Shown in pieces: positions 53,115-59,919 of a stretch of DNA of 64,000 nt. Within the stretch, counting starts at the first letter, position 1, and each line of letters opens with the position of its first letter. The stretch comes from Albidovulum inexpectatum (GTDB taxonomy: Bacteria; Pseudomonadota; Alphaproteobacteria; Rhodobacterales; Rhodobacteraceae). Under the pieces are notes generated by a model, which worked only from the letters and a program-made list of their open reading frames with translations, was not told where the DNA came from and ran no database searches. The stretch spans positions 1 through 64,000 of the forward strand of contig NZ_PRDS01000009.1 in NCBI RefSeq assembly GCF_002927635.1, in the 5' to 3' direction. The position numbers and the translations under genes are program-made.

Positions 53115-53259
53115 ACAACTTTATCAAGCTATATTAATGACTTAGATGTGTTTCGCCGGTGCGGCGGTACAGATGATGCGGTGTCATGGCCGCGCCACGG
53201 ATGGATTGACCTTTCGCGCTTGGCGGGCAATCGTCCAGCATCATGATCGGGGAGAGTGC

Positions 53260-56064
53260 ATGAGACTCAGTTGGCCTGAAGTCAGGGCGCGCGCGCAGCA
53301 ATTTGCCGATTCTTGGCGCGGCGAATCCTATGAGAAGGGCGAGGCCCAATCGTTCTGGAATGATTTCTTTCAGGTGTTCGGCGTTCCGCGGCGCCGTGTG
53401 GCACAGTTCGAGCGTCAGGTGCAAAAACTCGGCGGCGGCACTGGGTTCATTGACCTGTTCTGGAAGGGCGTCATGCTCGCGGAACAAAAAAGCGCCGGCC
53501 GTGATCTGGCGCAGGCACGTCAGCAGGCATTGGACTATCTCGACGGCCTCAAGGACTCCGAGTTGCCACGCTACATCGTGCTCTCTGACTTCCAGACCTT
53601 CGAGATGCTTGACCTCGAGACGAGCGAAGAAACGCAGTTCTCGCTTGAGCAATTGCCCGATCATGTCGAGAAATTCGGCTTCATCCTCGGGGTTACACCG
53701 ACCACCTTCCGGGATGAAGACCCTGTCAACCTTGAAGCCGCCGAGCTTGTGGGAAGACTCCACGATGCGCTCAAGGATGCGGGCTATTCGGGTCACGATC
53801 TTGAGCGCTTTCTGGTTCGGATCGCCTTCTGCCTCTTTGCAGACGATACGGGCATCTTCGAGCGCAACCTGTTCGTTGACACGCTCGAGTCGCGCACCCG
53901 CGAGGATGGGTCCGATACTGGGCCGCTGCTTGCCCAGATATTCCAGGTTCTCAATACGCCGGAAGACCTCCGTCCGCGTAATCTTCCGGCCGACATTGCC
54001 GCTTTTCCATACGTCAACGGCGAACTCTTCGCCGAGAGTCTCCGCATCCCTTCCTTCGATGGCGACATGCGTGAGAAACTTCTCGAAGCGGCGCGCTTCG
54101 ACTGGTCCGGGATCTCGCCTGCGATCTTCGGGGCGCTGTTCCAGTCGGTCATGGACCCGCAGGCCCGCCGGGCGCTGGGGGCACATTACACGTCCGAGAA
54201 GAACATCCTGAAGGTCATCGGACCATTGTTCCTTGATGATCTTCGCGACGAATTCGAGCGCATCCGTGTCCTCAAGACAGGACGTCGGAAGCGACTGGAG
54301 GAGTTCCACGCCCGCTTGGCATCCATGACCTTCTTCGACCCGGCCTGCGGTTGCGGCAACTTCCTCGTCATCGCCTATCGAGAGCTGCGCCAGCTCGAGA
54401 TCGACCTTCTGAAGGAGCTGCAGGCGGAGCGCGAGGATGCGCGCACTCTGGAGATGGACGTCCAGTTCATGTCCCGGATCGACGTTGATCAGTTCTACGG
54501 CATTGAGATCGAGGAGTTTCCGGCCCGCATCGCCGAGACCGCGCTGTGGATGATGGATCACATCATGAACGACCGGCTCGGGCGCGAATTCGGGAAGTCT
54601 TTCGCGCGAATTCCGCTGAAGAAGAGCCCGAACATTCGCCACGCCGACGCGCTGGAAACTGACTGGGATGACCTTCTGCCGGCCGAAAGGTGCAACTTCC
54701 TGTTGGGCAACCCGCCCTTCCTGGGCGCCAAGGTCCAGACCCCCGCGCAGCGCGCCCAGGTGCGGCGGATCGCCCGGCTGGGCGGCTCGGGCGGCACGCT
54801 CGATTTTGTGGCGGCATGGTTCATCAAGGCCGCGGAATACGCCGCAAAGGCCGATAAAGCCGGCGCCGCCCCGCCCCGCATCGGCTTCGTCGCCACCTCC
54901 TCAATCTGCCAGGGCGAACAGGTTGCCCAGCTCTGGCCGATCCTGTTCGGGCGCGGGGGCGTCGAAATCTCATTCGCCCACCGCCCGTTCAAATGGGGCA
55001 ACGAGGCGCGCGGCGTGGCGCAGGTGCATGTGGTGATCGTCGGGCTCGACCGGCGCGGGCGCGCGCCGAAGGACAAGCGGCTGTTCCTCTATCCCAGCAT
55101 CACCGCCGACCCGCAGGAGGTCAGCGTGCCGGTCATCACCGCCTACCTCACCGACGGACGGCGGCTGGCCGATCCGCATGTCGTCGTGAAGGAGGAGGCG
55201 CGACCCATCAACGGGATGCCGTCCATCATCTCGGGCTCACAGCCGATCGATGACGGGCACTACATCCTCAGCGAGGAGGAATACCGCGAACTCGAGGCCT
55301 CCAAACCGGCCGAGGCGCGCTGGTTCCGCCCCTTCATCGGCGCGCAGGAATTCCTCAACGGCGGGCGGCGATGGATCGTGCATCCCGACTCGATCCCGCC
55401 CGCGGAACTGCGCCGTCTGCCGGGCATCCTCGAACGAATTCGAAAGGTTCGAGAATTCCGATCGAGAAGCAAAAGAAAGCAGACGCTTGAGAAGGCGCAA
55501 ACCCCAGGCGATTTCAATGTCACCGTCATCCCTGACCGCCCTTTCCTCGTGCTGCCCGAGGTGAGTTCGGAACGCCGCGACATCATGCCCATCGGCTGGC
55601 TGGAGCCGCCGGTGATCCCGAGCAACAAGCTTCGGATACTCCCGGATGCCACCTTGGCCCATTTCGCGCTGCTGACCTCTGCCATGCACATGGCCTGGAT
55701 GCGGCTTGTGACCGGGCGGCTCAAGAGCGATTACCAATATGGTATCGGAATTGTATACAATACCTTTCCGCTGCCGCCGGGCGGGCTGGAAACGCTCGCA
55801 ACCCCGCGCATCGAGTCGCTGGCGCAGGCGGTGCTCGACGCCCGCGCCGCGCATCCCCAGGCCACGCTGGCCGACCTTTACGACCCCGACGCCATGCCCG
55901 CCGACCTGCGCGCCGCCCACCGCGCGCTGGACCGCGCAATCGACCGCCTCTACCGCCGGCAGGGCTTCGACACCGAGATTGAACGGGCCGAGCATCTGCT
56001 GGCGCTTTACGAAGCCGCCGCCGCGACCCTCATCAGGCGGCCACGGCGTTCCAGAAGTCGTTGA
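53260..56064 (+). CDS. MmeI-like Type IIL restriction-modification enzyme
   Basis: A 934-residue single-chain endonuclease-methyltransferase. The N-terminal PD-ExK nuclease motif is IDLFWKGVMLAEQKS (D-x9-E-x-K). A helical connector leads to the adenine methyltransferase with motif I FFDPACGCGNFL (about 357-368) and motif IV GNPPF (about 485). The C-terminal 350 residues hold the target-recognition domain. Such enzymes methylate one strand of a non-palindromic site and cut about 20 bp away. GGGGAG precedes the ATG. The gene is antisense to the virion operon, between gpF and the prohead protease. All catalytic motifs look intact. Confidence 0.9.
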   Translation: MRLSWPEVRARAQQFADSWRGESYEKGEAQSFWNDFFQVFGVPRRRVAQFERQVQKLGGGTGFIDLFWKGVMLAEQKSAGRDLAQARQQALDYLDGLKDSELPRYIVLSDFQTFEMLDLETSEETQFSLEQLPDHVEKFGFILGVTPTTFRDEDPVNLEAAELVGRLHDALKDAGYSGHDLERFLVRIAFCLFADDTGIFERNLFVDTLESRTREDGSDTGPLLAQIFQVLNTPEDLRPRNLPADIAAFPYVNGELFAESLRIPSFDGDMREKLLEAARFDWSGISPAIFGALFQSVMDPQARRALGAHYTSEKNILKVIGPLFLDDLRDEFERIRVLKTGRRKRLEEFHARLASMTFFDPACGCGNFLVIAYRELRQLEIDLLKELQAEREDARTLEMDVQFMSRIDVDQFYGIEIEEFPARIAETALWMMDHIMNDRLGREFGKSFARIPLKKSPNIRHADALETDWDDLLPAERCNFLLGNPPFLGAKVQTPAQRAQVRRIARLGGSGGTLDFVAAWFIKAAEYAAKADKAGAAPPRIGFVATSSICQGEQVAQLWPILFGRGGVEISFAHRPFKWGNEARGVAQVHVVIVGLDRRGRAPKDKRLFLYPSITADPQEVSVPVITAYLTDGRRLADPHVVVKEEARPINGMPSIISGSQPIDDGHYILSEEEYRELEASKPAEARWFRPFIGAQEFLNGGRRWIVHPDSIPPAELRRLPGILERIRKVREFRSRSKRKQTLEKAQTPGDFNVTVIPDRPFLVLPEVSSERRDIMPIGWLEPPVIPSNKLRILPDATLAHFALLTSAMHMAWMRLVTGRLKSDYQYGIGIVYNTFPLPPGGLETLATPRIESLAQAVLDARAAHPQATLADLYDPDAMPADLRAAHRALDRAIDRLYRRQGFDTEIERAEHLLALYEAAAATLIRRPRRSRSR

Positions 56065-56446
56065 TCTGTATCCTTTGGCGACTTGAGCAATTGAAATCCG
56101 CTGCGATATCCAACACCATCATGCGGGAAGCGCTGTCACGGCGGACCCTGCCATGCCTTGCATGTACGCGGGACCGGGCGCCACCCGGGGCGCTTCTCAC
56201 CGCAGCATTTGACAATGGACGAGACGCCCACAAATATTTCGCCTGAGCTGTCGGCAATGGCTCCCTCACCCTTGGCATTGCCATGAGGAGGTGACCGGGC
56301 GTGCCGACCCGGGACAGCTCGCGCTTTTACTCAACGCAAAGTCACGCTATAGTGTGGTCGGCAGCGTCGCTATCAGGCTGGCTTGCCCTTGCGCCCAACG
56401 GCGCTTGATGAGGCAACCGGGATCCGCCGCCCCGGGCCGCTGCCAA
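56065..56446. other. 382-bp non-coding interval between the restriction enzyme and gpF genes
   Basis: No convincing gene is visible: short frames exist on both strands but lack start signals and look like chance. The interval contains the strong inverted-repeat structure at 56245-56320 and several smaller repeats such as GGCAATGCC. It is the right-hand junction of the inserted restriction enzyme and the 3' flank of the gpF fusion. Confidence 0.6.
56245..56320. repeat. Three-way-junction inverted-repeat element
   Basis: An 8-bp outer stem (GAGCTGTC 56245-56252 / GACAGCTC 56313-56320) encloses two perfect helices. One is 7 bp (GGCAATG / CATTGCC, 56253-56282), directly abutting the left arm. 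The other is 5 bp (CCGGG / CCCGG, 56295-56312), directly abutting the right arm. A 12-nt linker joins them, and its GGTGA could pair with TCACC in the first loop. The stems abut without gaps, as in a folded RNA or a structured DNA site. Which strand acts, if any, is unknown. Confidence 0.6.
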
Positions 56447-57601
56447 TCATCGGATACGCGTCGATTTTGCGGGCACAAGCTTTCTTCCGCCAACTCTGAA
56501 CAGAGACACGGCCCAACTCCACTGAAGGCTGCGTTCGACCTTCACGGTCAGCCTGTATCCTCCAAGTACGAAAAGGAAATGGCGATCTGAACGCGCTGCC
56601 CATACATGCCCCGATGTGGCCATTTCCTGTATCATTGCGTATTGCTCGGCACCGATTTCAGGATGCTTTGCGAGATGGGATGCAAGCGTCTGCCGGGACA
56701 GCCAGACGACCCTGTTCCGCACTCCGAGTGTCGCCATCAGGTCATCGTCCAGCGCGGCGATCGGCCATAGATCTGGCGCCCCAGGCGCGCCTTCGACGAA
56801 ATCCCGAAACAGCTCCGTTCTCGCTGCGGCGGCGCACGTCTCGGGGTCCGGGCGCGTATATGCCGTCAGCAGGGTCAGGAGCTCCGCCGCGCGTGCCTCC
56901 GAGCACCAGATCGGCCTGCCCGTCGGGTCAGACACGAAGTCGCGCGCATCGCATCTTGCGGCCCTTGCCTCGACGGGATCGCTCAGGCGCTCAAGCAGCT
57001 TGCGCGGCCGCCTGCCCCATTGCCCGCCATCGGCGTGCCCCTCGGCCGGAATGATCTCGGTCCTGCCGCCGCGACGACGCGCGGCCCGGTCGGTCAGGGA
57101 CCGCAGCGTGCAGCGGCAATTGAACCCCAGTGGCGGCGAGATCCTGTCCCATACCGGATCGTCCACGGCCCGGATCACGCCGTCCAGCGCGAGATGATGC
57201 GGCCGCACGCGGCTGTCGTTGATGGCATCGAACATCAGCCAGGGGCGCGAACGGCGGGCCAGCTCGAAGTTGCGCCAATGCCCGGCCATGTAGTTGGTCT
57301 GCAGGTTCGTGCGGAAGATCGTCTCGAGCCGGTGACGCGGTAGTGTCCATTCCTGCGCCTCGGCCCAGGCCTTCCACCTGGCGAAGGACCAGCCTTGTTC
57401 CTCCGCCCGGATCAGGCTGTCGGCAACGGCCTGCACCTGGTCGAGCCGAGCGAGCCCTGAGACCGTGAATGCCAGCGCGCGCTTCTCCGGCGTCAGGCCG
57501 TAGAACGCCTCGGCCAGCATCGGTGCCATGGCGCGCGCCTGGGCGACCTGTACATGAAACGGCGCATCGAAGGAGATGCCGCCGCCATCTGCTGCGGGCA
57601 T
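56447..57601 (-). CDS. Mu gpF-like head morphogenesis protein with C-terminal toxin-like nuclease domain
   Basis: A 384-residue protein. Residues about 1-165 match phage Mu gpF/SPP1 gp7-type head proteins (FRTNLQTNYMAGHWRNFELA, INDSRVRPHHLALDG and the cysteine-containing ISPPLGFNCRCTLR). Residues about 275-370 match the phage-Barnase-EndoU-ColicinE5/D-RelE-like (PBECR) nuclease family (VVWLSRQTLASHLAKHPEIG, FLFVLGGYRLTVKVERS). PBECR domains fused to gpF are known in Mu-like phages and are thought to be injected or host-acting nucleases. The basic tail after residue 370 is atypical. It follows the portal gene by 1 bp. Confidence 0.85.
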   Translation of the reverse strand: MPAADGGGISFDAPFHVQVAQARAMAPMLAEAFYGLTPEKRALAFTVSGLARLDQVQAVADSLIRAEEQGWSFARWKAWAEAQEWTLPRHRLETIFRTNLQTNYMAGHWRNFELARRSRPWLMFDAINDSRVRPHHLALDGVIRAVDDPVWDRISPPLGFNCRCTLRSLTDRAARRRGGRTEIIPAEGHADGGQWGRRPRKLLERLSDPVEARAARCDARDFVSDPTGRPIWCSEARAAELLTLLTAYTRPDPETCAAAARTELFRDFVEGAPGAPDLWPIAALDDDLMATLGVRNRVVWLSRQTLASHLAKHPEIGAEQYAMIQEMATSGHVWAARSDRHFLFVLGGYRLTVKVERSLQWSWAVSLFRVGGRKLVPAKSTRIR

Positions 57602-59099: not shown

Positions 59100-59798
59100 T
59101 TACCCGGGGAAAAGCTCAAAGAGACTGCGGCGCTCGAACGTCGAGCCGCGCGAAGCGCCGAAGGTGGTCTTCAGGCCGATACCGATGAAGGTTTCGGAAC
59201 CGCCGCCCAGCGACTGATCCAGTTCCCCGGATCCGATTTCGCCGGTGACACTGAATCCACCCATACCGTATTCCCCGCGAAGGGCAATCCGGGAGGCGTC
59301 GAACCCTTCCAGGTCCACGTTGTGATAGGCAACACCGAGCTTGAACGCTTCGGTGACGGCATAATCGGCGCTGATCCCCAGAAGCGTGACATCGGCACCT
59401 TCGATTTCCGAGAGCGCCACATAGGCCTCTCCGGACAGGCTGCCGAACTCGTGCCCGACCTCGGCCCCGTAGACGGTTTCACCGAAGCCTTCGAATTCTT
59501 CGCGACCAACGAAAAGCCCGACGGATGTTGCATCGCTCACATGGCCGATGCCGTGCAGCGTGAGGTAGTTCGAGTCGATGTCATTGTCGAAGAACCTGAA
59601 GCCGATATCGCCCTGAACCGAGAATTGCTTGGTAAATCCAACCTCGACGGAGCCGGAAATCGACGTCGCATCGTAGTCGAGGTCATCACCGGTGAATGTC
59701 GAATATCTCAGCTGGATATCACCGCCAGTGACCTCGGCAGCAAACGACTGACCTGCCAGAAGCGACGCGATCAAAGCCGCTGTAGAAACGTATTTCAT
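59100..59798 (-). CDS. Outer-membrane beta-barrel protein, prophage cargo
   Basis: A 232-residue protein with a Sec signal peptide (MKYVSTAALIASLLAGQSFA) and alternating beta strands throughout, such as GDIQLRYSTFTGD, VSVQGDIGFRFF-like and FIGIGLKTTFGA repeats; the end is ELFPG. It looks like a small porin-like barrel (about 10-12 strands). AGGAG precedes the ATG at 59798. It is a separate unit with its own terminator, set between the Mor-like gene and the portal. It may alter the host surface, for example by superinfection exclusion; that is inferred from cargo genes of similar type. Confidence 0.8.
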   Translation of the reverse strand: MKYVSTAALIASLLAGQSFAAEVTGGDIQLRYSTFTGDDLDYDATSISGSVEVGFTKQFSVQGDIGFRFFDNDIDSNYLTLHGIGHVSDATSVGLFVGREEFEGFGETVYGAEVGHEFGSLSGEAYVALSEIEGADVTLLGISADYAVTEAFKLGVAYHNVDLEGFDASRIALRGEYGMGGFSVTGEIGSGELDQSLGGGSETFIGIGLKTTFGASRGSTFERRSLFELFPG

Positions 59799-59919
59799 AA
59801 CTGCTCTCCTGCCTTTGCGGGTTGCATCCCGCGCGTGCAGTAAAAGCAGTTCCGCCGGCATCCACAACGCGATGACACGTCGCGCGCCACAACTGTTGCG
59901 CGCAAGTCACCTTTTGTGA

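What the first reader, a model, noticed from the sequence alone, without database searches (positions are those of the whole stretch)
56245..56320. Compact three-way-junction element beside the restriction gene
Outer 8-bp, inner 7-bp and 5-bp perfect stems abut each other without gaps, with a possible GGTGA/TCACC loop-linker contact. Chance occurrence of three nested perfect stems in 76 bp is unlikely. It lies in a 382-bp interval without genes at the insertion junction. It could be a structured RNA, a transposon or recombination end, or a processing site.
Basis: seen in the sequence. Interest (0 to 1): 0.6.

Follow-up and report, generated by a model that had tools for sequence, protein, structure and literature searches.

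The report
Tandem cloverleaf RNAs beside phage toxin
The flagged hairpin cluster is one of three neighbouring small RNA genes in a prophage that fold like a tRNA cloverleaf, match no known RNA family, and sit next to a phage head protein with a ribonuclease-like tail, so they may be RNA partners or antidotes of that protein.

Summary
In detail: the nested stems are at 56245-56320, and this arrangement occurs once in the window and never in 3.8 Mb of matched random sequence. The interpretation needs revising. The element (B) is the middle of three related elements in the 382-bp gap: A 56125-56198, B 56245-56320, C 56360-56444. Twelve further copies lie in three other Rhodobacteraceae genomes. 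All 15 share a four-way cloverleaf: outer stem 8-10 bp, a short arm with an invariant GGC loop, a long arm, and a CCGGG/CCCGG arm with a GCC loop. RNAalifold places the same pairs unaided; 18 of 28 show changes on both sides that keep the pair. G-U pairs outnumber C-A/A-C 36 to 4, so it works as RNA of the + strand. Most copies have a sigma70-like promoter ending 3-7 nt before the stem. No Rfam family or tRNA matches. In the prophage, arrays lie antisense at the 3' end of a MuF head protein whose C-terminus models as a RelE/colicin-like (BECR) RNase fold. Best reading: a new family of small cloverleaf RNAs. The function, possibly a decoy or antitoxin for the MuF RNase domain, is inferred.

The parts
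56125..56198 (+). Element A: cloverleaf RNA. Outer stem 56125-56134/56189-56198; short arm 56135-56137/56144-56146 with loop ACGGCG; long arm 56147-56151/56168-56172 plus 56152-56156/56160-56164, bulge TAC; CCGGG/CCCGG arm 56174-56178/56184-56188 with loop CGCCA
   Evidence: R2 E 5.5e-11 in the whole genome; 6 A copies, RNAalifold gives this fold
56245..56320 (+). Element B, the reported feature. Outer stem 56245-56252/56313-56320; short arm GG 56253-56254/CC 56264-56265; long arm TCACC 56266-56270/GGTGA 56290-56294 plus 56273-56276/56280-56283; CCGGG/CCCGG arm 56295-56299/56308-56312
   Evidence: R2 E 1.1e-7; conserved in 4 copies
56360..56444 (+). Element C: cloverleaf RNA. Outer stem 56360-56368/56436-56444 (one mismatch); short arm 56369-56372/56379-56382; long arm 56383-56387/56412-56416 plus 56391-56395/56400-56404; CCGGG/CCCGG arm 56417-56421/56431-56435. 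Ends 2 bases before the MuF stop codon
   Evidence: R2 E 5.9e-5; 5 C copies
56091..56119 (+). Promoter-like boxes of A: TTGAAA, 17 nt, CACCAT
56209..56238 (+). Promoter-like boxes of B: TTGACA, 18 nt, AATATT; ends 6 nt before the stem
56326..56353 (+). Promoter-like boxes of C: TTTACT, 16 nt, TATAGT; ends 6 nt before the stem
56447..57601 (-). MuF head morphogenesis protein; C-terminal domain (56447-56941) models as a BECR/RelE-like ribonuclease fold. Neighbour and candidate partner
   Evidence: PF04233 6e-20; model pLDDT 92; fold matches BrnT, CdiA-CT, RelE, HigB
53254..56064 (+). MmeI-family type IIL restriction-modification gene, upstream neighbour on the same strand; absent from the related locus L152
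   Evidence: five MmeI Pfam domains

Best explanation
The gap holds three tandem genes for small non-coding RNAs (about 75-90 nt), members of one undescribed family. Each is probably transcribed from its own promoter on the + strand, starting at the base of the outer stem, and folds into a tRNA-shaped cloverleaf: acceptor-like outer stem, D-like arm with an invariant GGC loop, long arm with an asymmetric internal loop, and a T-like arm whose GCC loop can pair with GGC, as in a tRNA elbow. Shown: the fold, the family, the paralogy of A, B and C, strand bias, promoter statistics and the MuF context. Inferred: that they act in trans as folded RNAs bound by a protein. The most likely partner class is a tRNA- or RNA-binding protein, the best local candidate being the BECR ribonuclease-fold domain of MuF, which they would occupy as a decoy or RNA antitoxin and so protect the lysogen. 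I put the RNA-family part at about 0.85 and the decoy/antitoxin part at about 0.2-0.25; the figure below is for the trans-acting RNA-gene reading as a whole.
For: Model R1, built from A copies only, finds B and C as its best other hits. Fifteen copies at 43-95% identity: covariation 0.588 against 0.209 +/- 0.021 shuffled and 0.05-0.13 slid; RNAalifold gives 28 pairs, 18 with double changes. The same outer-stem covariation appears on sequence-only alignments of A and C. G-U 36 against C-A/A-C 4. Promoter score mean 10.4 against 2.6 in random 55-mers; 10 of 15 copies in the top 1% and 12 in the top 10%; -10 box 3-7 nt before the stem in most. No tRNA call; no Rfam match. In L152, L181 and L005, as in the window, the array lies antisense at the 3' end of a MuF with the same C-terminus. 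That domain models at pLDDT 92 and matches RNase toxins; a paper assigns the C-terminus of Mu gp30 to the PBECR predicted-RNase clade (PMC5512222). The sister prophage with an ART tail has a small following gene and no array.
Against: No transcript data. No clear terminator after the elements, so 3' ends are unknown. Five copies have upstream promoter scores outside the top 5%. Distant MuF-BECR homologues lack arrays, so the RNAs are not obligatory partners. Arrays also lie beside remnants of the ART-type immunity gene (L098, L153) or away from MuF (L097). L181 has lost A and B. B of G080 looks degenerate. The fold matches of the MuF tail are below Z 8. The B set (4 copies) and C set (3 copies in the sequence-only alignment) are small on their own.
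Confidence: 0.6

Rival explanations
1. Antisense regulators: transcripts from the array promoters read toward and past the MuF stop codon, pair with the late mRNA, and damp MuF synthesis in the lysogen; the cloverleaf stabilises the RNA.
For: All prophage arrays read toward the MuF 3' end; C ends 2 bases from the MuF stop codon; no terminator after C.
Against: Conservation lies in the fold and its loops, not in a stretch complementary to MuF; L097 holds the array beside no MuF; A and B are far from MuF coding sequence.
Confidence: 0.2
2. DNA element: the cloverleaf is a recombination or mobility site that shuffles cassettes at the MuF 3' end.
For: Order differs between loci in transcription direction: A-B-C, B-A-C, C-A-B, C-A; arrays lie where MuF toxin modules are exchanged; arrays away from the prophage lie near tRNA genes.
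Against: G-U 36 against C-A/A-C 4 means one strand is selected as RNA; promoters at fixed distance; loss of A and B in L181 is imprecise.
Confidence: 0.1
3. Processing or stability element of the late mRNA (minus strand) between MuF and protease.
For: The reverse complement also folds well; the position is between late genes.
Against: G-U asymmetry favours the + strand; + strand promoters; copies exist outside the late operon (L097, L098, L153).
Confidence: 0.05
4. Decaying tRNA-derived or phage debris without function.
For: Narrow distribution; remnants in L005 and L098; arrays near tRNA genes.
Against: Compensatory changes in 18 pairs across 15 copies mean selection on the fold.
Confidence: 0.05

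Closest known systems
tRNA
   Same: Cloverleaf with acceptor-like stem, D-like and T-like arms (T-like arm 5 bp), about 75-90 nt, loops that can pair at the elbow, found as an array
   Different: Outer stem 8-10 bp, no T-loop consensus, no 7-nt anticodon loop, almost no linkers, no CCA; not called by ARAGORN
Type III toxin-antitoxin RNAs (ToxI and relatives)
   Same: Tandem structured small RNAs beside a ribonuclease-fold protein
   Different: Not short pseudoknot repeats processed from one transcript ahead of the toxin; here on the opposite strand with own promoters; partner not shown (family features from general knowledge)
MuF polymorphic toxins of temperate phages (PMC5576092) and PBECR/MuF-C domains (PMC5512222)
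   Same: The neighbour gene is of this kind; the sister prophage has a MuF-ART followed by a small ORF
   Different: Here the 3' neighbour is an RNA array on the opposite strand, with no immunity ORF evident
Prophage-encoded small RNAs, e.g. C4 antisense RNA of P1-like phages
   Same: Short structured RNA gene in a prophage
   Different: No match to any of 4227 Rfam models at E up to 10 apart from chance-level hits

Membership tests
tRNA | Detected by a tRNA gene finder or the Rfam tRNA model | tested here: not met
   ARAGORN and cmscan find only tRNA-Arg at 402-478 in the window and nothing at the elements
tRNA | 7-bp acceptor stem, 7-nt anticodon loop, T-loop consensus | tested here: not met
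   Outer stem 8-10 bp, T-like loop 5-9 nt with GCC only, long arm with internal loop
tRNA-like shape (works like) | Four-way cloverleaf with complementary D-like and T-like loops | tested here: met
   Fold by RNAalifold on 15 copies; GGC invariant in the D-like loop, GCC in the T-like loop. The contact itself is inferred because the bases do not vary
Any Rfam 15 family | Score above the family's gathering threshold | tested here: not met
Structured non-coding RNA | Compensatory base-pair changes across homologues | tested here: met
   18 of 28-29 pairs with changes on both sides
Structured non-coding RNA | Transcribed in vivo | not testable with these tools
   Promoter statistics only
Type III toxin-antitoxin system | Ribonuclease-fold toxin next to the RNA | tested here: inconclusive
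   MuF C-terminus models as a BECR/RelE-like fold, best Z 6.0, Foldseek E 0.04; Pfam PBECR3 only E 0.014 in one homologue
Type III toxin-antitoxin system | RNA binds and inhibits the toxin | not testable with these tools
   none
Mobile element or recombination site | Precise unit borders or empty sites | tested here: not met
   Imprecise deletion of B and most of A in L181 relative to L152
Intrinsic terminator | Hairpin followed by a T run | tested here: not met
   None found in 55900-56800

The most novel reading that the evidence does not exclude
The cloverleaf RNAs are an RNA immunity system: tRNA-shaped decoys that bind and neutralise the phage's own MuF-linked BECR ribonuclease, taking the place of the immunity protein found after other MuF toxins.
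Probability: 0.2. Interest if true: 0.85.

Novelty: new variant of a known kind. Interest (0 to 1): 0.6.

Why it matters
It adds a small-RNA family with a tRNA-like cloverleaf, unmatched in Rfam, carried by prophages in tandem arrays. If the RNAs prove to bind the MuF ribonuclease-like tail, they would be RNA antidotes for a phage-injected polymorphic toxin and would make the long-open role of the MuF C-terminal domain testable. The case also shows how a single hairpin cluster resolves into a family once paralogues in the same gap are aligned.

Tried and rejected
Viral-contig pattern scans: apart from the window's own prophage, the sequences printed look like unrelated chance matches. BLAST against phage and plasmid records: none. 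Best hits of R1 in other family genomes (L102-L114): alignments poor, taken as chance. Most of the 39 genome-contig hits lacked the fold; real copies were the already known loci plus L152 and L153. Relatives of G361 and G080, and 21 congeners of the window's genome: no further carriers except the second Albidovulum. A match in G046 is one 39-bp chance stretch. The first structure prediction of full MuF failed (pLDDT 39). A protein-coding reading of the elements was set aside because of frame-breaking indels between copies; no formal coding test was run. Literature searches found no description of such an RNA.

Full report
Observation. The stems reported at 56245-56320 are present. The exact arrangement (8-bp outer stem, abutting 7-bp and 5-bp stems) occurs once in the window and in none of 60 Markov sequences of 64 kb. 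Single-sequence folding is moderately better than shuffles (z -2.5 and -2.9).

Setting. The window carries a prophage with a minus-strand late operon: terminase, Mu-type portal, MuF, a prohead protease. An MmeI-family restriction-modification gene (53254-56064, +) lies between MuF and the protease. The element is in the 382-bp gap between the convergent ends of this gene and MuF.

Homologues. DNA searches of related genomes found pieces of the gap in G080, then in G361. Reading these showed not one but three elements in the window: A (56125-56198), B (56245-56320, the finding) and C (56360-56444), with the same types in other orders elsewhere. A covariance model from A alone (R1) ranks B and C as its best other hits. 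A scan of 84,980 genomes with an A-specific pattern added L152 and L153 of an Albidovulum genome. A combined model (R2) finds 3 copies in the window's genome, 2 in G080, 4 in G361 and 6 in the Albidovulum S012_34 genome, including C in L152 and C in a second prophage, L181. One more G361 match and one more S012_34 match at E 0.3-0.9 are poor and are not counted. Other relatives tested lack it. G080 and G361 come from MAGs of one metagenome (titles), so the 5.6-kb G080 contig could be mis-binned.

Fold. On 15 copies (A15: 6 A, 4 B, 5 C; 43-95% identity) RNAalifold, without being told the structure, gives 28 pairs, of which 18 have changes on both sides that keep the pair. Counting the model structure gives covariation 0.588 against 0.209 +/- 0.021 in shuffles and 0.05-0.13 when slid. 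This alignment was fitted to the structure, so I repeated the count on sequence-only alignments: A has 4 and C has 4 pairs with double changes, 2 of 500 and 17 of 500 shuffles doing as well. B alone (4 copies) is too small to separate from shuffles. The fold is a four-way cloverleaf. The D-like loop has an invariant GGC and the T-like loop a GCC; their contact is inferred.

Strand and transcription. G-U pairs outnumber C-A/A-C 36 to 4, so the + strand RNA is what is conserved; G-U cells are not independent events, so the p-value printed there is optimistic. A sigma70-type score over the 55 nt upstream averages 10.4 against 2.6 +/- 3.0 in random windows; 10 of 15 copies are in the top 1%, and 12 in the top 10%; in most the -10 box ends 3-7 nt before the stem. 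An independent consensus scan finds the B and C promoters (2 found, 0.2 expected). No terminator was found.

Context. In L152 the order is protease, B, A, C, MuF with no restriction gene; in L181 protease, remnant of A, C, MuF; in L005 B and A lie at the 3' end of a MuF C-terminus. All four share the MuF C-terminal domain. Its profile reaches other MuF tails at E 1e-7 to 1e-11. AlphaFold with 9 sequences gives pLDDT 92, and the fold matches are a consistent set of RNase toxins: BrnT, CdiA-CT, RelE, HigB (best Z 6.0, Foldseek E 0.04) and phage MuF C-terminal proteins. Iyer and colleagues place the Mu gp30 C-terminus among PBECR predicted RNases (PMC5512222). The sister prophage L190 has an ART tail (PF01129, E 2.8e-5) and a following 113-aa gene, and no array; it keeps a remnant of the restriction gene's 3' end. 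Small ORFs after MuF toxins are taken as immunity genes (PMC5576092). Copies of that 113-aa gene's family lie next to arrays in L098 and L153, so the arrays are not tied to the BECR tail alone.

Mechanism. What is shown: a family of structured RNAs under selection for a cloverleaf, probably with individual promoters, in the region where MuF toxin modules vary. What is inferred: that they act in trans, and that the tRNA-like shape serves to occupy an RNA-binding protein, possibly the MuF tail. Antisense control of MuF is the main rival; DNA recombination is less likely because of the strand asymmetry and imprecise deletion.

Noticed in passing
53254-56064: MmeI-family type IIL restriction-modification gene inserted as a moron between protease and MuF; the sister prophage L190 keeps only about 200 bp of its 3' end (87% identical).
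   Followed up: partly
L190 6001-7619: Sister prophage about 90% identical, with a MuF whose tail is an ADP-ribosyltransferase (PF01129) followed by a 113-aa gene of unknown family, probably its immunity gene; relatives or remnants of the same gene lie by the RNA arrays in L098, L153 and L005.
   Followed up: partly
56286-56294: Element B contains AGGAGGTGA, the complement of the 16S rRNA anti-Shine-Dalgarno tail, inside its long arm; A and C do not share it.
   Followed up: no
59100-59867: Minus-strand gene for a signal-peptide outer-membrane porin-like protein (Porin_4, E 9e-5, below cut-off) among the phage late genes between portal and terminase.
   Followed up: no
L153, L097, L098: Arrays outside a clear prophage lie within about 0.6-2.5 kb of tRNA-Ser or tRNA-Cys genes, together with IS remnants, which suggests decayed integrated elements.
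   Followed up: no
L097 7349-7709: PemK/MazF-like toxin gene (by reading, not tested by profile) upstream of the array in G361.
   Followed up: no
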